Positions 14,390 to 42,611 of a DNA stretch of 51,842 nucleotides are shown here, piece after piece. Each line of letters opens with the position of its first letter. Position 1 is the stretch's first letter. The translations under genes were made by a program, and so were the position numbers. Source of the DNA: Betaproteobacteria bacterium HGW-Betaproteobacteria-22 (lineage in GTDB: Bacteria > Pseudomonadota > Gammaproteobacteria > Burkholderiales > Methylophilaceae); contig PHCJ01000027.1 in NCBI GenBank assembly GCA_002842285.1, positions 1 to 51,842 of the forward strand, read 5' to 3'. A model generated the notes under the pieces. It had not been told where the DNA came from. It saw only the letters and a program-made list of their open reading frames with translations, and made no database searches.

Positions 14390-14403
14390 GTCTAAAATTC
14401 CAA

Positions 14404-23692: not shown

Positions 23693-23769
23693 GGTGATGT
23701 AGCTCAGCTGGTTAGAGCACAGGATTCATAATCCTGGGGTCGAGGGTTCAAGTCCCTCTTTCACCACCA
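23693..23769 (+). tRNA. tRNA-Met (CAT)
   Basis: The anticodon stem CAGGA/TCCTG encloses loop TTCATAA (anticodon CAT). The T arm is GAGGG-TTCAAGT-CCCTC and the CCA end is encoded. The D arm (AGCTCAGCTGGTTAGAGC) is the elongator type. The acceptor has one T-T mismatch. It is the last core gene before the defence region, so its 3' end is a candidate attachment site. Confidence 0.95.
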
Positions 23770-23894: not shown

Positions 23895-26800
23895 TTAGAT
23901 GATCTGAACCATTTCCAACAACTTTTCATAGCTACTTAATTTAGAAAATTTCACTACACCACCACTGATAGTATCAAAGTGTTTCTCTGCACAATGAATC
24001 TTAAGCTTCTCAATCTCCCTTAAATCCATATCTGAATCAGAACCCTTGGTTTCTGCCACAAAGTAGATATGCCTTACTTTGTCTTTATCAAACACGATGG
24101 CCCAGTCAGGACTATAATTTGCAATAGGGGTAGAGATATAAAAGCTCTTGGGTAGTTTGGCATACACTACTACTTCTAGGCTGTTTTCCAACGCTTGAGC
24201 AAACTCTGCCTCAATCGTTGAGTCAGTAGTTAAATAGTCATAGATATGCTTTTTAAGCAGCTCAGAATCCCTTATGGCTGACTTATCATTGGTGAATACT
24301 GTTTTGGCATCATACCGCTCTTCTGTTTTGTGATAAACGATATTGCTGATAATCAAACTTGCCTTCACCTCGTTAATCAGCCTGCTACATTTGGCAATAA
24401 ACTCTTCAGGGTTTTTGCGTACAAGGTCAAATTTAAGGGCGGATATTGCTTTTAATATGGCAACAATAGTGTGTCTAGTCAGGTTGGTTAATGCCTCAAT
24501 CTCGCCAACGATATCATACGTAGCATTGGTGTAAATATCATTCTTCAATTTGAGGTTTTGGCGTTCAGATTCAACGATTAGCGCGCCATCTTGCATTTCC
24601 TCTTTAGTGCCGTCCCTTAATTCACCTGTTCTCACTTCATAGGTGCGGTCACTGATATGCAAATCTCGATCTATTCGGCCTTTGCTATCTGCAATCAGTT
24701 TTTCGGTATCAAACTTCACCTCATAAATGGTTTTGAGGTTTATCTTTTCCCAAAGCTCCTGAAACTCTTTTTTCTTGAAGTTGGGGTTGGTGGTTAGGAT
24801 AATTGTTTTGCGCTCATCTTCAGGCTTAAATGCTTCACCTGTGTAGATAGATTTGAGTAACTTGGTGACTGATTCACGGTAAGGTTCTAAGCTCTCAGGC
24901 AATGGCATCGTGCTTTTTTCAATTAGCTCTCTGCCAGATACAGTAATTTTATAGTTTTCATCAATCACATTGGCTTGAATGAGTTTGAATTGAATTTTCT
25001 GAGCATCCTCAGAGGTGAGCCTATGACTTTCACCTTTTTCATTTTCAATTAGTTTGCCCGTAAAGAAAGCAACATCCGCTTTCTGAGGTCTATCTTTAAG
25101 TGTTGCTGCAATCTCGCTTTGTAGCCCTTTAGCGAAAGCCTCATAGCTTTCAGAGGCAATCACAGTGAGCTTATTCATCTCATGAACCTGATCGCCTATT
25201 AGCTCAAAGTCTTGGCGTATGCCACGCTTATCCACGCATAAACGCATGCCACGGCCAACTTCTTGGCGTCTGCGCGTTTGGCTGCCACTTTCAGCATTTT
25301 TGAGTGCACATATCTGAAATACGTTAGGGTTATCCCAACCTTCTTTAAGCGCTGAGTGCGAGAAAATAAAGCGTGTTGGCTCTTCAAAGCTCAGCAGGCG
25401 CTCTTTATCTTTCATAATTAAATCATAAGCTGAAATATCATCAGAATCTTCACTGCCACGCTTCACCGTTGGGTCAACTGACTTACCTTTTTTATCCACG
25501 GAGAAATAGCCATCATGCACTTTCTCAGCCTCATCACGTTTTAGATAAGCAAAGTAGTTGGTTGGCATGTAGCCTTTATGCACGGTGCTTGGGTCAGTTT
25601 CATGCAAATACTGGTTATATTCATCATGGAAGAGATCGAAAAACTCATTCACTGCATGTTTATATTCTTCTTCAAATATGTGTCCATACTCACCGAGCGC
25701 TTGTTCTCCAGCATCGTCATACACTCGATACTTTTCCACGGAGTCGATAAAGAACAGACTTAATACCTTAATGCCCTTATCAAACAAATGCTTCTCTTTT
25801 TGCAAGTGCGACATAATGGTTTCGCGGATTTGTACGCGGCGGAAGGCATGTTCATCCTTGTCATTTAAAATATCGCCAGGGAAAATATCTTCACCGTTCA
25901 CAACTATCTTGTTGTGGTAGCCGTTAATCTCGGTAATGGTGCAATTTACATAAGCTGGCATATTCCCAGATAGCTCATATAAATTAGCTCCTTCACTTAC
26001 TTTTTGGCGAACTCTTTTCGGGCCTGAGCTTGTACGCTTTTCAAACTCTATCACTGCAAAGGGTGGCTTAGTAGTGCTAAGGCTAATCTGTTCCAAATAC
26101 AAATAGCCTGTGGTGCCTGTAGAGCCTTTGAGGTTAATGCCTTTTACTTGAATCTTTTTCACCAGTCGTTGGTTATAGGCATCCAAAGCATCGAGTCTAA
26201 AGACTTTGTTATATTCCTCATTCTTATCATGCGTTGCTGAATAACGAAGCGTGAACAAGGCATTAAAGTCTTCCATGCTTTTCATAGTTGCTGAGCCTTG
26301 TTTACCAACCGACTGTGGCTCATCGATAATTAGTATAGGATTTGTTTGAGAAATAATATCAATCGGCCTCCTAGTGCCAAACTGATCCAACTCTTTATAG
26401 ATTCTTCTTACCGCTTCGCTTCTATCATTTTCCTTTTGTGAACTAAACGCCTGCGTGTTAATAATCATCACGCTAATGCGGCCATCCGAGGCGAAATTTT
26501 CAATATCTTGTGGGCGGCCAGAGTTATAAATAAACGGGCTGACTTTGTGGCCGTAGATCTCTTGAAAATGCTCTTGCGTCACTTCAAATGACTTAAATAC
26601 CCCTTCACGAATGGCAATGCTAGGCACAATGACAATAAATTTGCTCCAGCCATAGTGCTTGTGCAACTCATACATGGTGCGGATATAGGTATAGGTTTTA
26701 CCAGTACCCGTTTCCATTTCTATGGTCAAGTTATAGCCATTCCTCAAGCCTGTCGGACGTTGAATCTGTTGGCTTTCATTCAAGTCATTTAAACGCTGAG

Positions 26801-27053
26801 CCGCTTGAATATTTTTAAGAACCTGTGCATCGGCAAGCACCAGTGGGCTGTTTCTATAGCCAATATCCTCAAGCACATCGGCTTCTAAACCTAAATCTTG
26901 CGCTCCTTGGGCGACCAGTTTGGCCTTACGGATAATCTCTCGGCTACGCTCTAAGGTAAAGCGGTTGGTTTTTAAAGGTTGCCCTTCAAAGCAATCCACC
27001 ACTGCTTTAACCGCCTGTAACTGAAACCCTTGCTGTTTAAACTGTAGTTTCAT
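23895..27053 (-). CDS. res: Type III restriction enzyme, Res subunit
   Basis: Res is the translocating, cleaving subunit of type III restriction-modification and works only in complex with Mod. The 1052-residue protein has a superfamily-2 ATPase core (Walker A METGTGKT, residues 113-120; the DEAD-like box IIDEPQ; late helicase motif QEVGRGMRL). A C-terminal PD-(D/E)XK nuclease is visible: P982-D983, then E1001-x-K1003 in VAETKG. Its ATG overlaps the mod stop (TAATG), so translation is coupled. It is the last gene of the minus-strand defence operon. No frameshift or missing motif was seen. Confidence 0.92.
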   Translation of the reverse strand: MKLQFKQQGFQLQAVKAVVDCFEGQPLKTNRFTLERSREIIRKAKLVAQGAQDLGLEADVLEDIGYRNSPLVLADAQVLKNIQAAQRLNDLNESQQIQRPTGLRNGYNLTIEMETGTGKTYTYIRTMYELHKHYGWSKFIVIVPSIAIREGVFKSFEVTQEHFQEIYGHKVSPFIYNSGRPQDIENFASDGRISVMIINTQAFSSQKENDRSEAVRRIYKELDQFGTRRPIDIISQTNPILIIDEPQSVGKQGSATMKSMEDFNALFTLRYSATHDKNEEYNKVFRLDALDAYNQRLVKKIQVKGINLKGSTGTTGYLYLEQISLSTTKPPFAVIEFEKRTSSGPKRVRQKVSEGANLYELSGNMPAYVNCTITEINGYHNKIVVNGEDIFPGDILNDKDEHAFRRVQIRETIMSHLQKEKHLFDKGIKVLSLFFIDSVEKYRVYDDAGEQALGEYGHIFEEEYKHAVNEFFDLFHDEYNQYLHETDPSTVHKGYMPTNYFAYLKRDEAEKVHDGYFSVDKKGKSVDPTVKRGSEDSDDISAYDLIMKDKERLLSFEEPTRFIFSHSALKEGWDNPNVFQICALKNAESGSQTRRRQEVGRGMRLCVDKRGIRQDFELIGDQVHEMNKLTVIASESYEAFAKGLQSEIAATLKDRPQKADVAFFTGKLIENEKGESHRLTSEDAQKIQFKLIQANVIDENYKITVSGRELIEKSTMPLPESLEPYRESVTKLLKSIYTGEAFKPEDERKTIILTTNPNFKKKEFQELWEKINLKTIYEVKFDTEKLIADSKGRIDRDLHISDRTYEVRTGELRDGTKEEMQDGALIVESERQNLKLKNDIYTNATYDIVGEIEALTNLTRHTIVAILKAISALKFDLVRKNPEEFIAKCSRLINEVKASLIISNIVYHKTEERYDAKTVFTNDKSAIRDSELLKKHIYDYLTTDSTIEAEFAQALENSLEVVVYAKLPKSFYISTPIANYSPDWAIVFDKDKVRHIYFVAETKGSDSDMDLREIEKLKIHCAEKHFDTISGGVVKFSKLSSYEKLLEMVQII

Positions 27054-28996
27054 TACAGCACCTTCATCTCGGTTTCTGGGCTTAGTTGCTTGAGTAGTTG
27101 TTTTACATTGGTTTTAGCGGTGTCGTCTTTAAAGCCTGCGTCTTTGAACACAATGCGCAATGGTTTTTCTTTGGCAATCTCTTTGGCAAATTCTTCATCT
27201 ATGCCATGGTCAAAGCATGCAAACAGGGAGTTCTCAGAGACTTTAAATACTTTTTTGCCGACTACATTCGCTTGTTCAATTTTCAGGCTCAGTGGTAAGC
27301 CCCAGTCCAACATCACTTGCGCCAGCAAATCATCTTCGGTACGGTCAGGTTTTACATTGTCACCAAACAAATCCATTTTGCCTTGGTCAAGGTCTTGCGG
27401 ATGATAATACACATCCTGCATATTACTTTCATCTAGGCGATAGACTCTAAAGCCATAATCAATATCGGCGCCAGTTTCTTCTTTGATTTTCTTGGCTGCA
27501 CGGCGGATGCGTTCTTTACCTATTTCTGCGATTGTTTTTAAATTTGCTCTAAATGCATCCGAATCAGGTTCGACTTCTTCTGGAATTTGAACTTGAATAA
27601 ATTTTCGTTGCCCCCCGTCTAAAGCGTTTAATTTCATAACTGCATGAGCCGTTGTGGCAGAGCCAGAGAAGAAATCTAAAACAATTTGATTAGTAGATAA
27701 TCCATGGTCAATTAAATCAAACAGAAGCCCAACTGGCTTTGGTGTATCAAATACTTTCTCGGTAAATAAATCCTTAACTTCCTCTGTTGCTACCTCGGTG
27801 GTATACATCGTTTTGTCTAGAACACTTCGTGGCTTCATTCTTCCTGAATCAGCTAAATAATCCTTCACATAAATAGTGCCGCCTTGACTTGCATATAATC
27901 TATGTAATTTATCTTGCGCAAATGGTTTTGACCAAATCCAACGTCCATCACCACCATCAGGTAATTTTGGTAGAACTTCAGTTCTTAGATTACCCGGCTC
28001 TAAATAAACCTTGCCTAGTGTGTCATAGTAAATAGGGTAAAAACATCCCGGACTATCTGTTCTTTTTTGACCAGCCCCTTTTTTTCTAAAAATCCCGTCT
28101 ACTTTAAATTTACCAAACTCATCTGTTTTATCGAATTTACTAATATAGTTTTCATCTTGCATTAGGTTACAAAATGCATCAGTGGAAGCCCCTATTTTTT
28201 TATAAACAAGAATAAAATCGTTATTGGTAGCAAATCCTTCTTTTGAACCCAGACCATTCTTACTTCTTACAACAGTGACAGTTGATACAAAGTTCATTTC
28301 ACCGAATATCTCATCGCATAACTTTTTCAGGTTATCGATTTCATTTTGGTCAATCGAAATGAAAATCACACCGTCTTCACGAAGTAAATTTCTTGCAAGT
28401 TTTAACCTTGGATACATCATGCTAAGCCAATCTGAATGATAACGGCCAGAGCTCTCAGGATTCACCACCAAGCGCTGGTTTAACTCATCTTTTTGTCCAC
28501 TTTCAAATAGATCCTCATCTTTATCTTTGGAAAAGTTGTCTTTATATACAAAATCATTACCCGTGTTGTAAGGCGGATCAATATAAATCATCTTGATTTT
28601 GCCAAGGTAGCTTTCTTGCAAAAGCTTGAGCACTTCAAGGTTATCCCCTTCAATATAGATGTTCTCAGTGTTATCAAAATCAACTGAGTCTTCACGCACT
28701 GGGCGCAGGGTTTTGGTGGTGGGTAAGTTGGCAGTCACAATCGCTTCACGTTTACCAGGCCACTCTAAACGGTAACGCTCTTTATTGCCTTCCACCACCG
28801 CATGGTTGAGTTCTTGTTTGAGCAAGTCAAAATCAATCGCTTTGGCTTTTTCACCATTCACCCCAGCGCTTTCAGTCACGCAGTTTGGGAACAGCTCCGC
28901 CAACTTTTCAAAGTTTTGGCTCACTAAATCGGGTGATTGCATATCGAGTTTATCGTCACCTGATTGATTTGAATGGTCTTGATTTGAATTGCTCAT
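27053..28996 (-). CDS. mod: Type III DNA methyltransferase, Mod subunit
   Basis: Mod recognises the target site and methylates adenine. The 647-residue protein is a beta-class N6-adenine methyltransferase: catalytic DPPY at 140-143 (IDPPYNTGNDF) precedes the SAM motif DFFSGSATT at about 441-449. The variable middle (about 240-390) is the target-recognition region; its specificity cannot be read. No homopolymer or short tandem repeat typical of phase-variable mod genes was seen. DUF4391 lies 23 bp upstream. Confidence 0.92.
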   Translation of the reverse strand: MSNSNQDHSNQSGDDKLDMQSPDLVSQNFEKLAELFPNCVTESAGVNGEKAKAIDFDLLKQELNHAVVEGNKERYRLEWPGKREAIVTANLPTTKTLRPVREDSVDFDNTENIYIEGDNLEVLKLLQESYLGKIKMIYIDPPYNTGNDFVYKDNFSKDKDEDLFESGQKDELNQRLVVNPESSGRYHSDWLSMMYPRLKLARNLLREDGVIFISIDQNEIDNLKKLCDEIFGEMNFVSTVTVVRSKNGLGSKEGFATNNDFILVYKKIGASTDAFCNLMQDENYISKFDKTDEFGKFKVDGIFRKKGAGQKRTDSPGCFYPIYYDTLGKVYLEPGNLRTEVLPKLPDGGDGRWIWSKPFAQDKLHRLYASQGGTIYVKDYLADSGRMKPRSVLDKTMYTTEVATEEVKDLFTEKVFDTPKPVGLLFDLIDHGLSTNQIVLDFFSGSATTAHAVMKLNALDGGQRKFIQVQIPEEVEPDSDAFRANLKTIAEIGKERIRRAAKKIKEETGADIDYGFRVYRLDESNMQDVYYHPQDLDQGKMDLFGDNVKPDRTEDDLLAQVMLDWGLPLSLKIEQANVVGKKVFKVSENSLFACFDHGIDEEFAKEIAKEKPLRIVFKDAGFKDDTAKTNVKQLLKQLSPETEMKVL

Positions 28997-29019
28997 AGGT
29001 TAGTCCTGATTTCTTGTAT

Positions 29020-29688
29020 TTATGCTTGTAGTTGTTCAAGTTGCTGCTGCAAGGTTTTGAGCTGGTTGTTCATTTCCACCTTGCGGTTAAATTGCTTTTC
29101 GTTACGCATTTTACTTTGTAACTGGGCAATCTCTTTTTGTTTTTGCGTTATCTGGCTAAGACGATCAGTTTGCGCTTTAATGCCTTCGCCCACATTGGCG
29201 GCAATGGGCATTAAGGCTTTGAGCATTTGCTCGTATAAGCCGCCTAAATTCAATGAAATTGGCAAAGGTGTTTTTAACTGCTCGACTTCGGCTTGGGTCA
29301 TCCACGTGCTAGATAAATATTGCTCTATCACCCACTTAGTTTCATCGGCCTCATTCAAGCGTTTATAGGCCAAAACCACTCGTATTTTATCTTCAAAAAA
29401 TAGTTGGTAAAAAATGGGGTGCGGAATGGCTTTGTCTATACTTAGCAATACACCGTTATCCAAATCAGGCGTTTTAAGCTGAATGTTAAACACCTGAATT
29501 TCAAACAAGCCTTTAACCGCTGCCAAGTTAGTGGTTTCAGGCGAAAGCTTATACGCCCAAGTGATTTGCTGAATTTGCGAAACAAACGCATCCTTCAATG
29601 ACCGAGAAATTGAAGCATGCTCGTAAAACTTGGTTTTAGGGATATTACGGTTCACGAGGGCTTTGTCGGGGAATTGGTATGTAATCAT
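29020..29688 (-). CDS. DUF4391 protein
   Basis: A 222-residue protein of the DUF4391 family, regularly found beside mod/res genes with a large helicase. Recognised by TKFYEHASISRSLKDAFVSQIQQITWAYKLSPETTNL and IDKAIPHPIFYQL, with a C-terminal coiled coil (about 170-222). Its biochemical role is unknown. The ATG at 29688 overlaps the gajB stop as ATGA, so it is translationally coupled to the Gabija helicase gene rather than to the big helicase. A longer start at 29718 would overlap gajB by 34 bases. Confidence 0.8.
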   Translation of the reverse strand: MITYQFPDKALVNRNIPKTKFYEHASISRSLKDAFVSQIQQITWAYKLSPETTNLAAVKGLFEIQVFNIQLKTPDLDNGVLLSIDKAIPHPIFYQLFFEDKIRVVLAYKRLNEADETKWVIEQYLSSTWMTQAEVEQLKTPLPISLNLGGLYEQMLKALMPIAANVGEGIKAQTDRLSQITQKQKEIAQLQSKMRNEKQFNRKVEMNNQLKTLQQQLEQLQA

Positions 29689-31103
29689 ACTGGAGTTAAC
29701 TCGTGAGAACTTGAGCAAATGATTAATCTTTTGGCTCCACGTGTTAGGGCAACATAAAGATTAGCAGCGTTCATATGCTCAGGGTTTAAGATTACTGCGA
29801 CATCTGCTTCAAGTCCTTTTAGCAATAAGGTGCTTCCTACTGCACGTCTTGAAATTACACGACCATGATGACGTTGAGATTCACGAGCAGCTAACACCTC
29901 ATCAATCAATGGTGTTCCTTTTATAGATGAATTTCCTAATGCAGAACTAAGGCAACGAAAGATTTCTGGGCGATATACACGAGCATTTTCTTGATTTTCA
30001 AACTTGCTTAATAGATCTAACATTCGCTCAAAACTTGGTTCAGAGCTGAAGGCTACTGCGGCAATTTCTGCTGATGATGGCTCAGTTCGCGAGCGACCAT
30101 TTCTTATAGTTTGAATACGACTCAAAAAATTGGCAGGACCAACTTGCGTAATAAAATCAGATGCGAAATTAACAAAGCTCTCTAAAGCATTCTCACTATT
30201 TAAATCAAAACTTCGAGCAAATGATACAAGGTCGCGATAGTCTACTGCCTCAACAGCTGTTGCCCCTGGGGTTTGACTGGTAAGCTGGTTCCTTCCTTGT
30301 GGGTTGCGGGAGTCACCTATAATAAGAACTGTATATTCACCATTTTCGGTACGAATTTGTGCAGCCCTTCGCCTCTCTTGATCTGCATTCTGATTGTTAA
30401 TTTGAATCCATACAACTTCTTGAGGTGCCTGTCTAAGATTAACAGGTGAACCGTCTATTAATCTTTGTCGCACATCTAATAACCATTGTCCCAAAACTTC
30501 TCTGTCAGCATTTCGCCAGCGCCAGGGCGTATTTAAGGTACCAATCGGTGGGAAAGATACTTCAACATGTTGTTGCCAATTTACTAATTGATTACCTCCA
30601 AAATCAAATATTGCCTGTAAAGGATCACCCAGAACCACAGTAGGAAGTATTAAAGATAGGGTATTAACCAATTCATGTTGAATTAGATTGCAATCCTGAT
30701 ATTCATCAGCAATTAGCCGTGAGTATGTAGCCTTTAAAACATCAGTAATATGTTGATTTCGTATTAATTGGGTCGCAGCACTACGAATTGCAGGGTAATC
30801 GTCGCTAGGGTTTCTAATTTCAAGCAACAATGGGGCATGTCCACTTCTTCTTGGAAACATCCCAATTATTTTTATTGCAAAACCATCTAATGTAGCAACT
30901 GTAAATGCTGAATTAGGGACTTGCGCACGCTTAAGTCTTAACCTTAAAGCTGCCGCGCCGGCATTAGTGTGTGTGAGTATTAGAATAGGTTTCTGTCCAT
31001 CGTGAATACTCAATGTATCTGCAATAAGTTGAGTTTTACCACAACCTGCGGGAGCTGTTACTGAACCCCTATCAACTCTGAATAGATCTATTTCAGGAGG
31101 CAT
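29685..31103 (-). CDS. gajB: Gabija helicase-like protein GajB (UvrD family)
   Basis: GajB partners GajA in Gabija anti-phage defence; it is a UvrD-like superfamily-1 protein thought to sense nucleic acid ends and activate GajA. The 472 residues fit the family. Walker A is AGCGKT (19-24), the Q-motif-like and Ia segments follow (ILTHTNAGAAALRLRL), Walker B is DEYQD (133-137), and the late motif YVALTRGAKRL is intact. The ATG lies inside the end of gajA (11-base overlap). Other UvrD-like proteins are possible, but the OLD-nuclease partner supports Gabija. Confidence 0.85.
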   Translation of the reverse strand: MPPEIDLFRVDRGSVTAPAGCGKTQLIADTLSIHDGQKPILILTHTNAGAAALRLRLKRAQVPNSAFTVATLDGFAIKIIGMFPRRSGHAPLLLEIRNPSDDYPAIRSAATQLIRNQHITDVLKATYSRLIADEYQDCNLIQHELVNTLSLILPTVVLGDPLQAIFDFGGNQLVNWQQHVEVSFPPIGTLNTPWRWRNADREVLGQWLLDVRQRLIDGSPVNLRQAPQEVVWIQINNQNADQERRRAAQIRTENGEYTVLIIGDSRNPQGRNQLTSQTPGATAVEAVDYRDLVSFARSFDLNSENALESFVNFASDFITQVGPANFLSRIQTIRNGRSRTEPSSAEIAAVAFSSEPSFERMLDLLSKFENQENARVYRPEIFRCLSSALGNSSIKGTPLIDEVLAARESQRHHGRVISRRAVGSTLLLKGLEADVAVILNPEHMNAANLYVALTRGAKRLIICSSSHELTPV

Positions 31104-32808
31104 ACATCCAGCTTCTCAAACGATTAACAGTTTCTTGAAATTCCTGATCAGCGGTATCCAAGTGTGGGCCAACAATTTCTTTAGCAACCTCTTGAAAAGT
31201 CGTTACAGATTTATACCATCCACTACCTTTTGTTCGAGACGCTTTTCCAAGGATAATTTTTGTTTCTTCCGTGATTGGTGCGAGTAGACTTTCAAGCTCA
31301 ATATCATCCAGACTTTTCTGACCATTAGATTTTGACCTAATGTGTTCACCAACCATTTCTCTATCAAATACCGTTATAGCCTTAGCAACTAGAGTGTCTA
31401 TAGCGGTATCATTTAGACTGAGAAATAACTCATCCTCAAGTGCTCGTGGTGATCTCCAATTTATGAACGGCCCATTAAATTTCATTACCAACTCTGCATT
31501 TAAAGGTTTATCACCATCCACGAGTACCAACACCCTGTACCCCAATTGTTTTAAAGCTATGGCGCGTTCGAAGCATTGATCTGGACTACCCCCTTTAGCA
31601 TCAACATAAGCTCCACCTAAAGCAAAAAAAGACTTTGAACCTTGACTCACCCAGAATTGGTCGAGACCTCTCGCAAAACCAACTTCACTTGCACCCTCGC
31701 AAACGATAATTGACTTTGCAAGAAATGCTTCTGGAACAGTTCTCAGAGTACTTTGAACTTCATCAGAACTGCCAACTTTACTTACATGATGAAATTCATT
31801 TCTTCTAACTATAAACAGTTGGTCACCAGATAGTTCACGAATAGCAACCGGTGAGTGACTGGTCATAAATACCTGCAAGGGTGGAGAAGTTTCCTTTGCA
31901 CCAAGTGAATCTAGAAGCCTGGCTATACGATGCGGTTCTAGTCCATACTCCACCTCATCTATCAAAGCAATTGATGCATCAGTTGTAGCTCTACGTTGAA
32001 GGCCTGCAATAAGAAGTCTAGTCGAGCCAGTGCCTAATAAACGTAATGGAACTCCGTTTTCACTATGGAGTGAAATTGCACCATCCGAGATTGAAACTGA
32101 ATGAGAATCCAACAATGCTTTAGCAATTTCACCAATTGGAATACCAAGTTCATTTGCAGTGGATGTTACTGCTTGAAGTGTGTTGTTTAGTTGCACAGCA
32201 GCTAGATCACCAAAGTTTGCACGCGCACTTCTCGCAGCCTCTGCCAAGGCTGGGCCGAGGTTCGCCCTATCAGTAGTCAATCTGTTTAGTACAGAGCCAC
32301 GTGTCCAGGATAGGTTTGAATTCGAATAATTGCCAATTCGCACAGGGGACAGAATTGTTCTTTCAGCCCATCCCATCCTTCTCTCCAAAGATATTTTTTC
32401 TGCACGCTCAGAGTAGAGCAACCAACTTGGCTCAAGGTCGCTAGAGACCCTCAATCGTAAAGTAAGAACTGTTTCAATTCCTGCACGAGGCTCATCTTCA
32501 ATTTCTTTAGTTTCAGGCACAAACCCACGTAAGAAATTACCATAAGAATCAAGATTTAAAAGTGTTTCGGGAAGATTGCCTAATGTTATTGATATATCAA
32601 TTAGCTCTTGTACATTTAAATCATAAAAGTCAGTATCTTCAAAAGACACATTTCGCCTAGCTCCCAAACAAATGTCAATAGCATCAAGAATTGTCGATTT
32701 TCCGCTGTCCCCTGGACCAATAAGGCAATTAATACCTGGCATTGGTGCCCAATTTAAACTTTGAATTGAGCGGAAATTTTTAATCTCTAGCTTGCGAATA
32801 ATTGCCAC
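31093..32808 (-). CDS. gajA: Gabija nuclease GajA (OLD family, ATPase plus Toprim)
   Basis: GajA is a sequence-specific DNA nicking enzyme held off by nucleotides. The 571-residue protein has an ABC-type ATPase (Walker A GPGDSGKST, 31-39; Walker B IALIDEVEYGLEP with D284-E285; SHSP at 317-320). The Toprim nuclease follows (E371 in IIVCEGASE; D431 and D433 in LVDGDKP). All expected catalytic acids are present. The start is a GTG at 32808, with GGA about 10 bases upstream. The large helicase ends 51 bp upstream; gajB overlaps its end. Confidence 0.87.
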   Translation of the reverse strand: MAIIRKLEIKNFRSIQSLNWAPMPGINCLIGPGDSGKSTILDAIDICLGARRNVSFEDTDFYDLNVQELIDISITLGNLPETLLNLDSYGNFLRGFVPETKEIEDEPRAGIETVLTLRLRVSSDLEPSWLLYSERAEKISLERRMGWAERTILSPVRIGNYSNSNLSWTRGSVLNRLTTDRANLGPALAEAARSARANFGDLAAVQLNNTLQAVTSTANELGIPIGEIAKALLDSHSVSISDGAISLHSENGVPLRLLGTGSTRLLIAGLQRRATTDASIALIDEVEYGLEPHRIARLLDSLGAKETSPPLQVFMTSHSPVAIRELSGDQLFIVRRNEFHHVSKVGSSDEVQSTLRTVPEAFLAKSIIVCEGASEVGFARGLDQFWVSQGSKSFFALGGAYVDAKGGSPDQCFERAIALKQLGYRVLVLVDGDKPLNAELVMKFNGPFINWRSPRALEDELFLSLNDTAIDTLVAKAITVFDREMVGEHIRSKSNGQKSLDDIELESLLAPITEETKIILGKASRTKGSGWYKSVTTFQEVAKEIVGPHLDTADQEFQETVNRLRSWMYAS

Positions 32809-32859
32809 TATACGTCCACCATTGTTTTATACAGTTAATTTATTAGGTTGAATTTTTTA

Positions 32860-35800
32860 TTACTGCACCACAATAAAGCTAATCAACTCAAAATCATCCA
32901 ATCCTTGAATGGTATTGGATAGCGCTGTAGTTTTTCCTAAGCTAAACAAGCTATCTAAGTCTTTATCCTCTTTGACTTCAATCATAGACTTAATGGCTTG
33001 ATCAAGCAGGCCAGACGCATGCCTCATCTCTTTGCCATCGTGTGTTTGCTTATTAAACAGTTTGCAAACTTCGTTAATCGGTTTGGATTCACCTTTGCAG
33101 GCGGTTCTAGCTAGGTCTAATAGGCGTTTTACCTCGGTGTGGTTATGTACCACTTCACCATCGTTGGAGATGTAGATTAAATAAAACGGATGTAATCTGT
33201 TTTGCTGGTTGATGTTCACCTCTGGGTTAATGTTGCGCAGGGTGAAGATAATTCCAGGCTTGAGGCCTTTTTCCAGATTTGCTGGCACTACAGCATGCAT
33301 ACCAGAGGGCAGGTGCACCAAGTCACTATTTTCTTTGATGTAGTTGAGCAAATCCATGCGAAAGTCGTTGAGGCCAAGATCAGTAATGGATACGCCAGCT
33401 TTCACATCCTCTAGCTCAATTACTTCTTCTTGCAGTTTGCGCAATTGCTCACGGCGGTATGACACATCGTTAGCTTTTGCATTGAGTACGTTATCGTCAC
33501 CTGTGGCGGTTACATCGGCAATCATCATGCGATTTTCAACACGCTCTTTCAGGTTGATATATTCATCCAACGAAATATCAGGCCAATAATTCATCAACTG
33601 GATGCAATCGTTGGGTGAGCCAATACGGTCCACGCGTCCAAAGCGCTGAATAATACGAACTGGGTTCCAGTGAATATCATAGTTAATCAGGTAATCGCAA
33701 TCTTGCAGGTTTTGGCCTTCTGAAATGCAATCTGTACCAATGAAAATATCAATCTCTCTTGGTTCATTGGGCAATATTTTGTCTTTTTCTTTTGAGCGTG
33801 GTGAAAAGAGAGTAAGTAACGCTTGAAAGTCGTAGAGGCGTTTTGTATTGTCTGGGCTAATGGTAGAACGCGGTGCATCTGAACCAGTCACCTTGCCTGA
33901 GTGCAAACCATGCGTTTGCAGAATATGTGGCGCGATATTTTCGTAAAGGTAATCTGCGGTATCTGCAAATGCGGTAAAGACTAGTACTTTTTTATTGCCT
34001 GCGTTAATGGGGTTATCAATTTTTTCTTTGATATGGGTAATCAGGTGTTGCAGCTTATAGTCATGCACAGGCGTGATTCTGCTCATTTCTTTATGCAGTT
34101 CGTCGATGAAGACTAAATCAGCCTTGAGGTCTTCTTCCCATGCTACGACATCCATATCGGATAGCTTAATTTTGACCTTGCCACCAATTTCATTGTCATC
34201 TTGGTTTTCTGAAATATCGTCTTCATCAAACTCTAAATTCTCATAACTATTAGAGGCATCTTCAAAGCCTCCATCCACGCCTGTTTTTTTGAAAGTCTCA
34301 ATTTTGTTGAGAGTAGCGATATGGTTGTTTTTGAGTTTTTCTAAAGTGAGTCTAAAGGAGTGCACCGAACTCTCTAGACGTTTGAGTAAGTTGGTGGTCA
34401 TCAGGGCAACCAAGCTGCGCTCTCGGTCTACTTGTTTAAACTTGCCTTTCCCTTCGCGCACATCGGTATCATAAAGCGCTTCATACTTACCAATACGGCT
34501 TGGCAATATGTAACTAACGGGGGAGTAAACGCAGAGTTTTAAAAGTGATAGGTGCTGATAAATTTCATTGAAACTCATCACGCCATCAAGGTCGGTTAAT
34601 GGACTATGGAACGATATAGGCTTTAAGCGTGTGGGGAACTTGCCAATGTCAGCTGTGTTGTAGAAAGTTTCAATATGCTTTCTGGAACGCGCAATGGTGA
34701 CACGGTCTAGTAGTTCAAAGAAGTCAAAGTCGAGTAACTCTAAGATAGCTTCAGCAGTGCGTTGTTCAGTAGGCAAATTTGACCAGGTAGTAAATGCAGC
34801 CTGAGCGCTACTAAAAATGGTCTCAATATCGCGCTCGGTTTTCACCTTATCACGTAAGGTGCTAGAGTCACCTTCATAGGCTAATGCAAGCTGGTTTCTT
34901 AAATCTGCGAAACGATTATTAACTGGAGTGGCTGAAAGCATCAAGACTTTGGTTTTTACGCCTTGCTTAATAACAGTGTTCATCAGTTTTTGATAGCGGG
35001 TCTCTTTGTCTTTAAACGCATCGTTATTTCTGAAGTTGTGCGATTCATCTATTACTACTAGGTCGTAATTGCCCCAGTTGACCTTGCTGAGTGGCATGCC
35101 GAGTGATTCACCCGTGGTGCGTTGTAAATCAGTATGGCAAAGCACATCGTAATTGAGCCTATCTTTTGCAAGTATGTTGGTGGTGAGGTTGCGATTATAA
35201 GTAACCCAGTTATCCGCAAGCTTCTTTGGGCATAATACCAATACAGACTTGTTTCTAAGCTCGTAATATTTAATCACAGCCAACGCGGTGAAGGTTTTAC
35301 CAAGACCTACGCTATCAGCCAGAATACAGCCATTGTAGGTTTCCAGCTTATTAATAATTCCAGTAGCTGCATCCTTCTGGAAGTTAAACAGCTTGTTCCA
35401 AATAATACTGTCTTTGTAGCCAGTTAGATCATTGGGCAGAACATCTTCGTTCACCTCATCCAGGAAGTCTCTGAAGATGTTATACAGCATAAAGAAGTAG
35501 ATGCGCTCTGGAGAGTTTTCTTGATATACAGAAGATATATGCTCACAAATGGCCTCTGTCACATCTTCAAGCTTTTCCTGATCATGCCAGATGGTATCGA
35601 ACAAGTTTAAATAAGCCCCCGTCATGGGCGCTTCAAACTTGTTTACGATATTTGAGAAGGCATTTCCACGCTGGTATCCTAAATCAACTGCAGTGAAACC
35701 AGAGATTGGCATATAAACCGCTTCGCTCTCTTGTTTAGTGCAAGCAGCAAATTGTTGCATAGGGGCTTTGGTTTTATTGGACTTGAAAGTGGCTTTTTTA

Positions 35801-36138
35801 ATGATCCAGTCAGCACACTCTTTCGCGATAGCACGTTGGTTTAATTTATTTCTAAGTTGAATTTCAAACTCAGTACCATAGAAATTTTTCTCAAAATTTG
35901 ACTTTGGGATGTGAAACTCTCGATGCTCTTTTTTGATTTTGTCAGTAGCTTCTGTAGGAACAAACGTGGGGGATGTAAAAATAAATTGCAGTGAGTCGAT
36001 ATGCTCTAATTCTTTTTTAAGAACTGCAAATGCATAAATTGAAAAGCATGAAGCCGCAATTTTCAGTTTGGTATTTGGTGTGAGCTCTTGTTTTAGATCT
36101 TCACCGAGCAGCGAGTTGATATTGTCTATTATTTTCAT
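32860..36138 (-). CDS. SNF2-like helicase associated with type III R-M / DUF4391
   Basis: A 1092-residue superfamily-2 ATPase: Walker A DSVGLGKT (275-282), DESH (364-367), SATPVNNR, and the C-terminal helicase domain ending in IQRFGRVDRIGS. The N-terminal ~160 residues resemble the PLD-like leader seen in this family (LKIAASCFSIYAF, FIFTSPTF, GTEFEIQLRNKLNQRAIAKECADWI), but no HKD catalytic motif is visible. An acidic insertion lies near the middle (EFDEDDISENQDDNEIGG). It starts 73 bp after the xre stop. Its likely job is to remodel or move on foreign DNA for the Mod/Res/DUF4391 set; the pairing with Gabija is unusual. Confidence 0.8.
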   Translation of the reverse strand: MKIIDNINSLLGEDLKQELTPNTKLKIAASCFSIYAFAVLKKELEHIDSLQFIFTSPTFVPTEATDKIKKEHREFHIPKSNFEKNFYGTEFEIQLRNKLNQRAIAKECADWIIKKATFKSNKTKAPMQQFAACTKQESEAVYMPISGFTAVDLGYQRGNAFSNIVNKFEAPMTGAYLNLFDTIWHDQEKLEDVTEAICEHISSVYQENSPERIYFFMLYNIFRDFLDEVNEDVLPNDLTGYKDSIIWNKLFNFQKDAATGIINKLETYNGCILADSVGLGKTFTALAVIKYYELRNKSVLVLCPKKLADNWVTYNRNLTTNILAKDRLNYDVLCHTDLQRTTGESLGMPLSKVNWGNYDLVVIDESHNFRNNDAFKDKETRYQKLMNTVIKQGVKTKVLMLSATPVNNRFADLRNQLALAYEGDSSTLRDKVKTERDIETIFSSAQAAFTTWSNLPTEQRTAEAILELLDFDFFELLDRVTIARSRKHIETFYNTADIGKFPTRLKPISFHSPLTDLDGVMSFNEIYQHLSLLKLCVYSPVSYILPSRIGKYEALYDTDVREGKGKFKQVDRERSLVALMTTNLLKRLESSVHSFRLTLEKLKNNHIATLNKIETFKKTGVDGGFEDASNSYENLEFDEDDISENQDDNEIGGKVKIKLSDMDVVAWEEDLKADLVFIDELHKEMSRITPVHDYKLQHLITHIKEKIDNPINAGNKKVLVFTAFADTADYLYENIAPHILQTHGLHSGKVTGSDAPRSTISPDNTKRLYDFQALLTLFSPRSKEKDKILPNEPREIDIFIGTDCISEGQNLQDCDYLINYDIHWNPVRIIQRFGRVDRIGSPNDCIQLMNYWPDISLDEYINLKERVENRMMIADVTATGDDNVLNAKANDVSYRREQLRKLQEEVIELEDVKAGVSITDLGLNDFRMDLLNYIKENSDLVHLPSGMHAVVPANLEKGLKPGIIFTLRNINPEVNINQQNRLHPFYLIYISNDGEVVHNHTEVKRLLDLARTACKGESKPINEVCKLFNKQTHDGKEMRHASGLLDQAIKSMIEVKEDKDLDSLFSLGKTTALSNTIQGLDDFELISFIVVQ

Positions 36139-36211
36139 TTTTATGTTTATTGGATTTAAAAAATAACCTTTACTAAAACAACTTCCAATCTGTCTTTAGT
36201 AAAGATTTAAG

Positions 36212-36412
36212 CTATTCGATTCTTTCAAATAAAGTACCAACTTCACATTTTAAATAGTCACATAATTGATCCATTACATCGAGATCAATTCTCTCAGCCG
36301 TCTCTTGATATAAACGAGTCAAAGTACCTCGGTTTATACCCGTGTCCCTCGATACATCACTAATTTTTAGTTTTTTCTCGCCCATAATCCGAGATAAATT
36401 GCACTTAATCAT
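36212..36412 (-). CDS. XRE-family regulator, probable repressor of the defence operon
   Basis: A 66-residue single-domain HTH protein (MIKCNLSRIMGEKKLKISDVSRDTGINRGTL... ending CEVGTLFERIE), of the short Cro/YozG type. It is the first gene of the minus-strand defence operon, and a perfect 29-bp palindrome begins 13 bp upstream of its start. This is the classic layout for autoregulation and for control of the divergent xis-int promoter. Which of the two it represses is inference. Confidence 0.85.
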   Translation of the reverse strand: MIKCNLSRIMGEKKLKISDVSRDTGINRGTLTRLYQETAERIDLDVMDQLCDYLKCEVGTLFERIE

Positions 36413-36556: not shown

Positions 36557-36793
36557 ATGAGTGCAACAACATTTCTAACAACCAATCAGCTAGCTGAACG
36601 TATTCAATATGATGTACGAACAATTCGTGAGCAATTAAAAGATAGCGTCTTAATTGAAGGGATCCATTACGTGCGCCCTTTTGGACGAAGAAAGATTCTC
36701 TACATTTGGGAAACTATCGAGAATGAAATTCTTAAGTCTAAGAATTTTGCATTCGGCATCCCAATGGCAAATGGAGGTGTTTGTCATGGCTAG
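36557..36793 (+). CDS. Excisionase-like / HTH DNA-binding protein
   Basis: A 78-residue protein with a winged-helix excisionase pattern (FLTTNQLAERIQYDVRTIREQLKD, then GIHYVRPFGRRKILYIWE). It precedes int and overlaps its start by 8 bases. AAGGAG lies 8 bases before the ATG. Such proteins direct the integrase toward excision, or select which recombination partner is used. Confidence 0.75.
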   Translation: MSATTFLTTNQLAERIQYDVRTIREQLKDSVLIEGIHYVRPFGRRKILYIWETIENEILKSKNFAFGIPMANGGVCHG

Positions 36794-38036
36794 CATTAGA
36801 GCACGCACAGACTCTGGTTTGCTTTTCTTCGACTTTCGCTATAAAGGTACACGATGCCGAGAGCAGACAGCGCTAGAGGACAACAAAACCAACCGTGCAA
36901 AGATGGAAAAAATCCTTAAAAAAATTGAAGAGGATATTGAAGCGAACAACTTCGATTATCGCCGCTACTTTCCTAATAGTAAGTTAGCAGAAAAGTTTGA
37001 TAGCCTACAAGCAATCAGAAGCAAGATTTCTTTAGCGACTCAGCAAGCATTTGCGGCCTCACCAGTTGTCATGGATGCACCACTGTTTTCAGATTTTGCT
37101 GAGCAATGGTTTATAGAGTTTTCTGTGGGATGGCGTCGCACCTATATTTCTACTGTGCGACAGATTATTGATAGCCGATTAATCCCAGCCTTCGGGAATA
37201 AGGCGGTCAGCAACATCCGTCGTGAGGATATCCTCAGTTTTCGTTCCACTCTCGCCAAAGAACCAGGACGTAAACAGGACTCTAAACTATCACCACGAAG
37301 AATCAATGCAATTGTTCTTGTGCTGACGCAAGTGCTCAACGAAGCCGCTGACCGCTTTAACTTTACCACAGCAGGCGATCGAATTAAACCGCTCAAGCTG
37401 AAGAAGGCGGACGTTATGCCTTTTTCGCTTGAAGAGGTGTATCGGATTATTGAAACAGTCAGACCTGACTTTAAAGACTACTTTACCGTCAGATTTTTTA
37501 CCGGCATGCGCACAGGTGAAATCGATGGCCTGAAATGGAAATACGTCGACTTTGAAAAACGCCTGATTTGTGTTCGTGAAACCTATACAGCTGGCGATGA
37601 GGACTACACCAAGAATGACACCAGTCAGCGTGATATTCGCATGTCCCAACCGGTCTACGATGCTCTAAAGCGTCAATATGAAGCGACAGGTAAATTTTCA
37701 AAGTTCGTGTTCTGCAATCGCGACGGCAACCCAATAGATCTGCACAACTTCTGCAAGCGTGTCTGGTATCCCCTACTCCAGCATCTTGGCCTGGAAAAGC
37801 GCACGCCTTATCAGAGCAGGCATACCGCCGCAACGCTATGGCTAGCTGCAGGTGAAGCGCCCGAGTGGATTGCCAGGCAATTAGGGCATGCCAATACGGA
37901 AATGCTATTTACCGTCTACAGCCGCTTTGTCCCCAACTTAACACGCCAGGATGGCAGTGCCTTTGAACGCTTGTTACTGCAATCCGGTGGTAACAAAAAC
38001 GATACCACGGCTGCAACTAGCGTCGAAACAGCTTAA
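36786..38036 (+). CDS. int: Tyrosine-recombinase integrase (DUF3596 arm domain)
   Basis: A 416-residue site-specific recombinase. The N-terminal arm-binding domain (SGLLFFDFRYKGTRCREQT) and core-binding domain precede the catalytic domain: R242 (TGMRTGE), R345 (QSRHT), H368 (LGHAN) and Tyr378 (YSRF). Box II has Tyr342 where many family members have His, which I recall as normal in this group. The start is the ATG at 36786, with GGAGGT 7 bases upstream; a longer in-frame extension to 36654 only reads the xis gene in another frame. It stands about 13 kb from tRNA-Met. Confidence 0.9.
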   Translation: MASIRARTDSGLLFFDFRYKGTRCREQTALEDNKTNRAKMEKILKKIEEDIEANNFDYRRYFPNSKLAEKFDSLQAIRSKISLATQQAFAASPVVMDAPLFSDFAEQWFIEFSVGWRRTYISTVRQIIDSRLIPAFGNKAVSNIRREDILSFRSTLAKEPGRKQDSKLSPRRINAIVLVLTQVLNEAADRFNFTTAGDRIKPLKLKKADVMPFSLEEVYRIIETVRPDFKDYFTVRFFTGMRTGEIDGLKWKYVDFEKRLICVRETYTAGDEDYTKNDTSQRDIRMSQPVYDALKRQYEATGKFSKFVFCNRDGNPIDLHNFCKRVWYPLLQHLGLEKRTPYQSRHTAATLWLAAGEAPEWIARQLGHANTEMLFTVYSRFVPNLTRQDGSAFERLLLQSGGNKNDTTAATSVETA

Positions 38037-40385: not shown

Positions 40386-42611
40386 TTAAGTCACCCAAAC
40401 AGACTGATTTTCAATGACATTAATAAAACTTTTACCTGAGAATCCATTCGGATAGAGTGTTGAACTTGAAATTGTCCCGCCTGAATCGATCTTATCAATA
40501 TTAATTTCTTGGTTGCTAGACATGCCAAGTGGATTATTCAGCAAATGTCTGTCATCACGCAATGCGATAAGCACCTCTTCTAGCGACACTTTCAAAAATC
40601 CGTTGAATCTCTCATGATCATGTTCAATACATGTATCTACGATCCAACCCTGGATTGATTGCACTTTATCAGCAGACTTTAAACCGAGTGAGCTTGCAAT
40701 ATTTTCATTATAGATTAGTGCCAACCGCACCGCTTTGAGTTTGCGGCATAACTGCAATCCAGCTTTGCGTAACGTAGTTGTTTTGTGCAACCAAGCTTCC
40801 TTAAACGACCGGCGCATATAGGTTGATTTAATTTCAAGAATCAATATATGACCATCCAGTGCGCAGATGACATCAATTTCACCAGGGTTATCTTCTTCAG
40901 ATGTTGCAGGATGATAATTTAAAAGCACATTAAACCCTCTGTCCTCAAGAGATTTCCCAAGCCGTTGTTCGATGCGATCCGTTTCTTCTCGGGCTTCTCC
41001 TCTACGCGCCCCAATTCTCCGTAGATTATTAATCGCTGCCGTAGAGTTATTCTGCATTGCCACAACCCATGGCAATTGAAAAAAGTATCGCCCCATCTTC
41101 AACATTGGTCGCTCATGAAGTTCTGGAATAAGCGCAGATTGACCATTACGCATTTGCTTGGACAGCCCAGATAAATCATTAGTCCAAAAATCTAGAATGG
41201 CTTCAGCCGCTTTGGCTAGTCCTTGCGGAAAGCTCTTGCTTACCGTCCATGGACGTATACTTTCAATCTTGGTAGCTCTCTCTGAAAATGTTATTGGTAA
41301 ACGATTTTGTGGAATTGATTGCATCATGCCATCCATGGCAAGAGAAGCTAACGCCGGCCTCCACTGGCCAGTTTTACTTAGAAGTTTCTCAAATGGACGA
41401 ACATAATCTTTGATATAGAAAGCTGTCATCAACTCTAGTGATAGCAAAGCCTGAAATACATCCACTTGCAACCCTGTGTCCGCTAAGATTGATTCATTTA
41501 GCCCATAGACCTCGGTTAATTGAAGCTTAGTACGAATAGTCTTGATAAAGGCAATTTGATTCTCATTATGGTTTTCAGAGCTGCCTATTCGCTTCATTGC
41601 CATTCCTGATGTTACAAACTCATCTATTGCACGATAAAACCAGTAATTGTGCAACCGTGCCAATTTCTGACCGTTATTCTGCCATGCGCTACGTTCAGCT
41701 TCGTTAAGCACGGTAATTACGAGTTCAGTTCCTGCATATTCAAATCGTATATTGTCGTCATAGCAAAATGCATCGACTGAACGCTCAAGGAAACTATTCA
41801 ACTCAAGCTGGGCGTCGATTAAATTACCAAAGGCAGAATAAAGATCATCTCTGATTATAGGAAGCTCGGGCGAAGGAAATAAAAATGGAGACAGATGCTC
41901 ACGTAACGATCTGCCAATGATAGCTTCAGTTAGTTGAAAATCACTTTCATCACAGTTGCGAAGTTTCCATATCAAGATGTCATTGATAGCATCCCAAACA
42001 TTCTGAGTATCATTCTCGCTTCCATCTTTTTGACTAGTTAAATTGAAAATTTTAGGTATCAAGTGCTCGAAGCCGTACAGGCTGGCATATATGAGAAGCT
42101 CCAGCGGCGAGATATCTGCTAACAACCGACTATGCAACTCAACATCATCCAGCCTTATTCGATGCGCATGATGAAATGTGTGACATATTTGAACGATTTC
42201 ACCAAACTCGACTGCATCTACAACTGCAATACGCTCAATCTCCTTCCAACGATCAGAGTCTTGGCGCAGCACAATCCCAGAATAACGTACCGCTCGACGG
42301 ACAGCCTCAGGCGCGACGTTCGCGATGTGCTGAATCAACTCAAAATTAGCAATCTGTTGTTGTGACAAGTAACGTGCCAATGCCAACACCAATGGTTGTG
42401 ATTCGAAGCACTCGGTAGACAACCCCCAAAGAAACAAAGATGCCCAAAAATCTGCATTCCGGTAAGCAGTATTGATTGAAGGCTTTCCATTTCGCACTGG
42501 CTTATTGTCAAGATAGTCTTCTGCTACAGCAATAGCAGCATCAGTCATTGACAATCCTAATGTGACATTACGCTCGAACCGCAGCTGATAAATATTTTTA
42601 TTGTTTTCCAA
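40386..42611 (-). CDS. Large protein with C-terminal PD-(D/E)XK nuclease motif
   Basis: No named family was recognised. The 741-residue frame is mostly alpha-helical, with no membrane segment. A restriction-type nuclease motif lies at the C terminus: E556 (KSLEDRGF), D580 (GEIDVICALDG) and E593-x-K595 (LILEIKST). This is the same pattern as Mrr/VSR-like nucleases. The frame opens with a TTG at 42611 without a clear ribosome site. An ATG at 42548 (residue 22, with AGGA upstream) is a good alternative, giving 720 residues. It lies on the same strand as, and 248 bp after, the SMC-type operon. A role in defence is inferred from the nuclease and position. Confidence 0.65.
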   Translation of the reverse strand: MENNKNIYQLRFERNVTLGLSMTDAAIAVAEDYLDNKPVRNGKPSINTAYRNADFWASLFLWGLSTECFESQPLVLALARYLSQQQIANFELIQHIANVAPEAVRRAVRYSGIVLRQDSDRWKEIERIAVVDAVEFGEIVQICHTFHHAHRIRLDDVELHSRLLADISPLELLIYASLYGFEHLIPKIFNLTSQKDGSENDTQNVWDAINDILIWKLRNCDESDFQLTEAIIGRSLREHLSPFLFPSPELPIIRDDLYSAFGNLIDAQLELNSFLERSVDAFCYDDNIRFEYAGTELVITVLNEAERSAWQNNGQKLARLHNYWFYRAIDEFVTSGMAMKRIGSSENHNENQIAFIKTIRTKLQLTEVYGLNESILADTGLQVDVFQALLSLELMTAFYIKDYVRPFEKLLSKTGQWRPALASLAMDGMMQSIPQNRLPITFSERATKIESIRPWTVSKSFPQGLAKAAEAILDFWTNDLSGLSKQMRNGQSALIPELHERPMLKMGRYFFQLPWVVAMQNNSTAAINNLRRIGARRGEAREETDRIEQRLGKSLEDRGFNVLLNYHPATSEEDNPGEIDVICALDGHILILEIKSTYMRRSFKEAWLHKTTTLRKAGLQLCRKLKAVRLALIYNENIASSLGLKSADKVQSIQGWIVDTCIEHDHERFNGFLKVSLEEVLIALRDDRHLLNNPLGMSSNQEINIDKIDSGGTISSSTLYPNGFSGKSFINVIENQSVWVT

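What the first reader, a model, noticed from the sequence alone, without database searches (positions are those of the whole stretch)
23895..36412. Gabija pair nested inside a helicase-DUF4391-Mod-Res operon
One minus-strand run reads xre, SNF2-like helicase, gajA, gajB, DUF4391, mod, res. The gajA/gajB overlap, the gajB/DUF4391 ATGA overlap and the mod/res TAATG overlap tie the two defences into one translated unit. By family knowledge the helicase, DUF4391, Mod and Res go together without Gabija. The nesting suggests either a hybrid system (methylation status steering a Gabija nuclease) or a hot spot inside the R-M operon. All catalytic motifs look intact.
Basis: partly seen in the sequence, partly recalled or inferred. 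Interest (0 to 1): 0.78.

Follow-up and report, generated by a model that had tools for sequence, protein, structure and literature searches.

The report
Gabija embedded in restriction-modification operon
A complete two-gene bacterial anti-phage system (Gabija) sits cleanly between two genes of another anti-phage operon; relatives of that operon often carry other defence genes at the same joints, so this looks like a good example of a known habit, defence genes nesting inside other defence operons, rather than a new machine.

Summary
On the minus strand, 36412-23895, the order is xre, SNF2 helicase, gajA, gajB, DUF4391, mod, res, with every stated overlap present. gajAB are an intact, diverged Gabija pair; mod and res an intact type III pair.

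The core helicase-DUF4391-Mod-Res is widespread. Of 120 complete copies, 55 carry >600 bp of extra sequence in at least one of three joints; the longest ORF there is co-directional in 69 of 74 filled joints. Cargo includes Schlafen-type, RhuM, GmrSD, SIR2-HerA and IetAS genes. None of 153 helicase loci (139 with the helicase/DUF4391 joint in view) shows this GajAB. All 17 Gabija contexts compared lack the core within the stretch fetched. The closest core (helicase 82%, same bacterial family) is empty at the joint. gajAB have foreign codon usage (GC3 0.24 against 0.40).

The "methylation-steered hybrid" half found no support. Embedding is published (DarTG2 in type I R-M; guilt-by-embedding preprint, cited but not seen). 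A new member of a known kind; the platform survey is the more useful part.

The parts
36212..36412 (-). small Cro/C1-type HTH regulator (xre), 66 aa; not a conserved part of the operon
   Evidence: Pfam HTH_26 78 bits; a relative found upstream of the helicase in 1 of 122 loci, at 24% identity, E 0.004
32860..36138 (-). SNF2-type helicase, 1092 aa, first gene of the four-gene core
   Evidence: Pfam SNF2-rel_dom and Helicase_C; PADLOC C3a139 'HKD+Snf2' 400 bits; 71-73% identical to 7 order-level relatives
32809..32859 (-). 51-nt AT-rich gap, upstream junction of the insertion
   Evidence: promoter-like and terminator-like sites in the region are not above chance; no fold better than shuffles
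31093..32808 (-). gajA: ABC-type ATPase plus TOPRIM nuclease (OLD family), 571 aa
   Evidence: PADLOC GajA PDLC04168 761 bits; profile of 10 relatives reaches solved GajA 8sm3 at 2.2e-9 over parts of ATPase and TOPRIM; residues E371, E375, D431, D433, E458, K533 invariant in 10 rows
29685..31103 (-). gajB: UvrD-like SF1 helicase, 472 aa, overlapping gajA by 11 nt
   Evidence: PADLOC GajB PDLC04173 618 bits; GCGKT, DEYQD, ALTR motifs
29020..29688 (-). DUF4391 protein, 222 aa from the ATG that overlaps the gajB stop
   Evidence: PF14335 203 bits; follows the helicase and precedes mod in the 120 complete operons; AlphaFold2 pLDDT 95.6, no solved structure at E<=0.001 by Foldseek
27053..28996 (-). 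mod: type III DNA methyltransferase, 647 aa
   Evidence: N6_N4_Mtase 116 bits; PADLOC MTase_III 732 bits; DPPY and FSGS motifs
23895..27053 (-). res: type III restriction subunit, 1052 aa
   Evidence: ResIII and RE_endonuc; PADLOC REase_III 925 bits; GTGKT, DEPQ and PD..ETK motifs
23693..23769 (+). tRNA-Met, probable left boundary of the island
   Evidence: extra copies of the tRNA 3' half kilobases away in several genus genomes; no second copy inside the window
36786..38036 (+). tyrosine integrase beside the operon
   Evidence: Arm-DNA-bind_2 and Phage_integrase

Best explanation
A complete Gabija pair was acquired as cargo in the helicase/DUF4391 joint of a mobile type III-like R-M operon (helicase-DUF4391-Mod-Res) beside tRNA-Met and an integrase. 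Shown: intact pair, intact core, clean junctions, empty closest relative, foreign codon usage, and a core whose joints repeatedly hold other genes, many of defence families. Inferred: gajAB are read through from the operon's promoter and DUF4391 is translationally coupled to gajB, so the R-M system and Gabija are expressed together. Mod protects the host and Mod-Res cuts unmodified entering DNA. Gabija acts separately as a second line, its TOPRIM nuclease held off by normal nucleotide levels and released when phage replication depletes them or phage anti-restriction triggers it. No step of GajAB action is predicted to need Mod methylation.
For: Genes and motifs. No gajAB in 153 helicase loci, of which 139 show the helicase/DUF4391 joint; helicase-to-DUF4391 distance -19 to 69 bp in 38 of 38 plasmid records listed for both genes (computed in 116). 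Closest core L229 (helicase 82%, Res 81%) has a 35-bp joint; the window's insertion lies exactly between helicase stop and DUF4391 start. 55 of 120 complete operons have >600 bp in a joint: helicase/DUF 6, DUF/Mod 24, Mod/Res 44; longest ORF co-directional in 69 of 74 (less two joints withdrawn). Much cargo is of defence families, including two-gene systems SIR2-HerA (L120) and IetAS (L202). Synonymous GC3 0.243 for gajAB against 0.402 for the core, Fisher p 2.5e-20; no core stretch of the same length is below 0.362. 17 Gabija contexts without the core. Nucleotide-gated Gabija: PMC8136825 and PMC10822852, passages.
Against: No transcript data; co-transcription is inferred from spacing, and the 51-nt gap before gajA could hold its own promoter, which the simple scan cannot exclude. 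One example of this insertion only, so its selective value cannot be read from conservation. Mod also has somewhat low GC3 (0.334), though not as low as gajAB. The right end of the island was not found. Some joint proteins match no family in PADLOC or Pfam (for example L142, L172, both of L191, L203), so not all cargo is shown to be defence. GajA relatives over the full length are few (4 besides the window among 369 genomes), so the donor is unknown.
Confidence: 0.82

Rival explanations
1. A functional hybrid: the core senses unmethylated DNA, or loss of its own activity, and GajAB is its linked effector, so that Gabija here depends on Mod, DUF4391 or the helicase.
For: Tight spacing, with an overlap at gajB/DUF4391. 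A passage in PMC12255303 says Gabija is activated on sensing the anti-restriction protein Ocr, so a guard role beside an R-M system is conceivable. Other joints also hold nuclease or ATPase families.
Against: Not seen in any of 153 helicase loci, 139 with the joint in view; GajAB relatives at 42-63% identity stand alone in the contexts fetched; separate codon usage. [quoted passage not shown]
Confidence: 0.1
2. Hitch-hiking: gajAB landed in a tolerated site and persists with the mobile operon without any benefit from shared expression.
For: Single occurrence; recent acquisition by codon usage; the joints also hold genes of no clear defence role, such as the 23S-IVP-like four-helix protein, and unnamed ones.
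Against: Cargo is mostly co-directional (69 of 74) and much of it is of defence families, which random tolerated landing does not predict; the start/stop overlap at gajB/DUF4391 suggests fitted expression.
Confidence: 0.06
3. Assembly artefact joining two loci.
For: Only one draft assembly (40 contigs) carries the order; reads were not available.
Against: Both junctions are inside one contig, with intact frames and overlapping start/stop codons.
Confidence: 0.02

Closest known systems
Embedded defence systems ('guilt-by-embedding'; Hma-embedded candidates HEC and PDC candidates; Payne et al. 2024 preprint as cited in passages of PMC12255303 and PMC12988326; the preprint itself was not seen)
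   Same: A complete defence unit lies between core genes of another defence operon, co-directional; several cargo proteins in sibling operons match PADLOC HEC and PDC models
   Different: Host operon is the helicase-DUF4391-Mod-Res type III unit and the cargo is a named system, Gabija; whether the preprint covers this host is not known to me
DarTG2 inside a type I R-M operon with repressor RptR (PMC12255303, abstract and passages)
   Same: Second system between two R-M genes, small regulator as first gene
   Different: Type I not type III; toxin-antitoxin not Gabija; our xre is not conserved with the operon and its role is untested
Auxiliary and backup effectors in BREX and BREX-related loci (PMC12839542, passages)
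   Same: TOPRIM/OLD nucleases and Schlafen RNases fused to a minimal histidine kinase and wHTH nested in a modification-based operon; the commonest Mod/Res cargo here is a Schlafen AlbA_2 plus HATPase protein
   Different: Core is type III Mod-Res, not PglZ/PglX
Gabija of Bacillus cereus VD045 (PMC8136825, PMC10822852, passages)
   Same: OLD-type ATPase-TOPRIM GajA followed by UvrD-like GajB; most catalytic positions identifiable
   Different: Diverged subfamily: pairwise sequence search reaches the solved GajA only over the Walker A region

Membership tests
Gabija | GajA with ABC ATPase and TOPRIM nuclease domain | tested here: met
   PADLOC GajA 761 bits; profile to solved GajA E 2.2e-9 with one stretch in the ATPase and one running into the TOPRIM, though OLD 6p74 and PtuA score slightly higher on ATPase parts; Foldseek hits 8x5i and 8sm3 at probability 1.00, but OLD 6p74 ranks first, TM-scores are low (0.15-0.20) and the model is poor outside the TOPRIM half (mean pLDDT 57.7)
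Gabija | TOPRIM catalytic set E379, E383, D432, D434, D511, D513, K541 (BcGajA numbering) | tested here: inconclusive
   E371, E375, D431, D433 and K533 invariant in 10 relatives; the first four fall in the stretch aligned by the profile. The D511/D513 pair may be A456-x-E458, like T506-x-E508 of OLD_Bp quoted; the pairing of E458 and K533 is my reading of spacing and no structure alignment confirms it
Gabija | GajB UvrD-like helicase encoded directly after GajA | tested here: met
   PADLOC GajB 618 bits; 11-nt overlap
Gabija | 4:4 complex, nucleotide-gated nuclease, phage defence | not testable with these tools
   needs protein and phage assays
Type III restriction-modification | Mod methyltransferase plus Res with helicase and PD-(D/E)XK domain, adjacent | tested here: met
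   mod/res overlap by one base
Type III restriction-modification | one-strand methylation and cutting at two inverted sites | not testable with these tools
   needs methylome and restriction assays
Embedded defence system | complete second system between core genes, with the core also found without it | tested here: met
Hma | HmaA helicase, HmaB m5C methylase, HmaC ATPase (PMC8565338, passages) | tested here: not met
   methylase is of the N6/N4 type III kind; helicase scores 82 bits to HmaA but 400 to C3a139
DISARM | DrmD with DrmA, DrmB and further Drm genes (recalled) | tested here: not met
   only partial DrmD-like matches of the helicase: PADLOC 113 bits, NCBIfam 140 and 101 bits against cut-offs 610 and 950; no other of the seven proteins has a Drm family among the matches listed

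The most novel reading that the evidence does not exclude
Gabija here serves as a guard of the type III operon: when phage anti-restriction or DNA mimicry disables Mod-Res or the helicase, the linked GajAB is released, and the helicase/DUF4391 joint is a dedicated effector slot (GmrSD in some relatives, Gabija here), so the operon is a sensor platform with exchangeable effectors.
Probability: 0.12. Interest if true: 0.72.

Novelty: new member of a known kind. Interest (0 to 1): 0.37.

Why it matters
It gives a countable platform: one well conserved four-gene type III operon, found in many bacterial phyla by record title, whose three joints take up different genes while gene order stays fixed. 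That makes two open questions testable: whether nesting gives co-regulation or dependence, and which unnamed joint genes are new defences. The Gabija case is a clean test pair, because the effector also exists alone and its mechanism has been studied.

Tried and rejected
Hybrid reading: looked for a second helicase-gajAB-DUF4391-mod-res in order, phylum, genus and family samples of genomes, GTDB contigs, viral contigs and plasmids; none found. In 14 of the 153 loci no DUF4391 is in view. Plasmid tables were capped at 40 rows of 48 (DUF4391), 458 (helicase) and 315 (GajA). A very different Gabija type would be missed by tblastn with these two proteins; of 30 joint proteins scanned against both PADLOC and Pfam, one (L100, a UvrD protein) has GajB as its best PADLOC match, but a weak one of 33 bits over part of the model, and L055 is OLD/AriA-like with a DUF2130 neighbour; the others have no Gabija model as best match. 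Short GajA matches limited to the ATPase start occur in L055, L059, L147 and L162.

Xre as a conserved operon member: rejected. Island right end: no second tRNA copy in the window. Internal promoter or structure in the 51-nt gap: nothing above chance. Single-protein GajA scan of genome contigs found nothing. E. coli genomes: no near DNA match. DUF4391 fold: confident model, no solved relative at E<=0.001. The GajA model is too poor outside the TOPRIM half to be an independent membership proof. Paper searches. DUF4391 occurs in one held paper, PMC7784981, seen only as a search listing. The Payne 2024 preprint was not seen; the library holds no bioRxiv preprints.

Mended on checking: two joints counted as filled were withdrawn, L146 (the helicase continues in another frame) and L069 (mod largely unmatched), so 57, 7 and 25 became 55, 6 and 24, and 70 of 76 became 69 of 74.
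Full report
What is there. On the minus strand the window reads xre, SNF2-type helicase, gajA, gajB, DUF4391, mod, res. The spacing claims hold: 51 nt between helicase and gajA, 11-nt gajA/gajB overlap, ATGA shared by gajB and DUF4391, 23 nt to mod, one base shared by mod and res. Pfam or PADLOC scans agree with every name. Walker, DEAD-type, PD-(D/E)XK, DPPY and TOPRIM residues are present; an HxKx4D pattern, implied by the PADLOC name of the helicase family, is not found.

Is it Gabija? GajA scores 761 bits and GajB 618 bits to PADLOC models. Pairwise search reaches solved GajA only over residues 6-76, but a profile of ten relatives matches GajA 8sm3 at 2.2e-9, with one stretch in the ATPase and one running into the TOPRIM. 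Against this: the OLD nuclease 6p74 and PtuA score slightly higher, on ATPase parts. The catalytic residues listed for BcGajA in PMC10822852 have likely counterparts E371, E375, D431, D433, E458 and K533, all invariant in the ten-row alignment; the last two pairings are by spacing only. With the adjoining UvrD-like GajB this is a diverged Gabija. An AlphaFold2 model is good only in the TOPRIM half; its best Foldseek hits are OLD 6p74 and then GajA, so it adds little.

Does the core exist without Gabija? Helicase loci came from an order sample of genomes (fetched), GTDB contigs (best 80 of 580), a phylum sample, viral contigs and the window's own genus and family: 153 loci in all. None shows this GajAB; in 139 of them DUF4391 is in view after the helicase, in 14 it is not. 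Of the 153, 120 hold helicase, DUF4391, Mod and Res complete and non-duplicate on one strand, in that order in each. In 38 of 38 plasmid records listed for both genes, helicase and DUF4391 lie -19 to 69 bp apart (computed in 116; many are near-identical E. coli and Acinetobacter plasmids). The closest core, L229 in the same family of bacteria (helicase 82% in two pieces, broken near residue 170; Res 81%, DUF4391 65%, Mod 58%), has an empty joint.

Does Gabija exist without the core? Seven plasmid contexts, three further genome contexts (a fourth, L063, is the same DNA as L048 over the 2 kb compared) and seven viral contigs, one of them holding only 76 residues of GajA, carry gajA relatives with no core gene detected by tblastn in the 6-26 kb fetched: 17 of 17.

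Is the joint special? In the 120 operons, >600 bp of extra sequence occurs in the helicase/DUF joint of 6, the DUF/Mod joint of 24 and the Mod/Res joint of 44; 55 have at least one (which mends). The longest ORF is co-directional in 69 of 74 filled joints. Cargo by representative (clusters; scans): Schlafen AlbA_2 plus HATPase (15 full-length loci and one fragment among the first 91, all in Mod/Res; Pfam run on two), RhuM, YhcG, SoFic, Bro-N, HEC-01A, HEC-07, an AAA_13 protein of PDC-S06 (RloC-like is my label), UvrD, DUF2130, SIR2-HerA, IetAS, PDC-S46, GmrSD (four of the six helicase/DUF fillings: L100 and L117 by Pfam, L062 and L234 by BLAST kinship) and a 23S-IVP-like protein of 119-132 aa in that joint in six loci. 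Some joint proteins match nothing. On the helicase tree (109 rows, FastTree) states change at least 5, 15 and 29 times for 5, 20 and 40 filled rows, so filling is recurrent. The sample is not random: the 80 GTDB loci are the best-scoring ones.

Is gajAB foreign? Synonymous GC3 is 0.260 (gajA) and 0.222 (gajB) against 0.402 for the core, 0.419 being expected for the same amino acids at core usage; Fisher p 2.5e-20; core stretches of equal length run 0.362-0.444. Mod is the lowest core gene at 0.334. This fits separate, fairly recent arrival.

Setting. A tRNA-Met ends 125 bp from the res stop, and an integrase lies beside xre. 51 of 52 genus genomes match at least part of the 1.3 kb next to and including this tRNA, and several carry extra copies of the tRNA 3' half kilobases away, as integrated islands leave. 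No such copy lies in the window.

How it most likely works. Mod-Res, perhaps aided by the helicase and DUF4391, act on unmodified DNA (family knowledge; the helicase and DUF4391 roles are unknown). Gabija is a separate nucleotide-gated nuclease (PMC8136825 and PMC10822852, passages), expressed with the operon as a second line (inferred). A passage in PMC12255303 states that Gabija responds to Ocr, which leaves a guard role open; a passage in PMC12707154 states that T7 and T3 anti-restriction does not inhibit type III enzymes, which speaks against it for this core.

What is known. Nesting of defence systems is in print: DarTG2 in type I R-M (PMC12255303), a second system inside type I R-M on Pseudomonas islands (PMC12629846, passages), backup effectors in BREX (PMC12839542), and guilt-by-embedding (a preprint cited in PMC12255303 and PMC12988326, not seen). 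In the held library DUF4391 appears in one paper, seen only as a listing, and no paper holds DUF4391, type III restriction and helicase together. So the kind is known; this host-cargo pair and the slot survey were not found in the searches named here.

Noticed in passing
window 42860-49223 (-): Four-gene Mks/Wadjet-like set: DUF3584 1219 aa, MksE-like 211 aa, 408-aa protein without a match, DUF7281 294 aa. The Wadjet-like label is my reading; PADLOC gave no match to these four at E 1e-8.
   Followed up: partly
window 40386-42611 (-): 741-aa protein whose C-terminal part matches PADLOC 'Viperin-associated NERD' (80 bits); no Pfam match.
   Followed up: no
window 50595-51485 (-): DUF2130 protein (217 bits), the same family as cargo in the DUF/Mod joint of L098 (Pfam) and its BLAST kin in L055 and L057.
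   Followed up: no
window 36557-36793 (+): 78-aa ORF overlapping the integrase start, no Pfam match; by position and size possibly an excisionase.
   Followed up: no
window 29020-29688 (-): DUF4391 gives a very confident model (pLDDT 95.6) with no solved relative at E<=0.001 by Foldseek: possibly an undescribed fold.
   Followed up: partly
L131, L132, L184, L203: Two mod genes in tandem inside one operon, suggesting two specificities for one Res.
   Followed up: no
L053 about 13254-14914 (helicase-oriented coordinates): About 1.7 kb between two parts of mod near residues 443-455, besides extra sequence in all three joints.
   Followed up: no
window 23724-23769 and genus genomes: The tRNA-Met 3' half recurs kilobases away in several genus genomes, e.g. 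G1057, G1021, G1026: an integration hot spot.
   Followed up: partly
L083, L098, L104, L106, L110, L069, helicase/DUF joint: A 119-132 aa 23S-rRNA-IVP-like four-helix protein recurs in this joint in six loci (clusters; Pfam run on one of the six).
   Followed up: no
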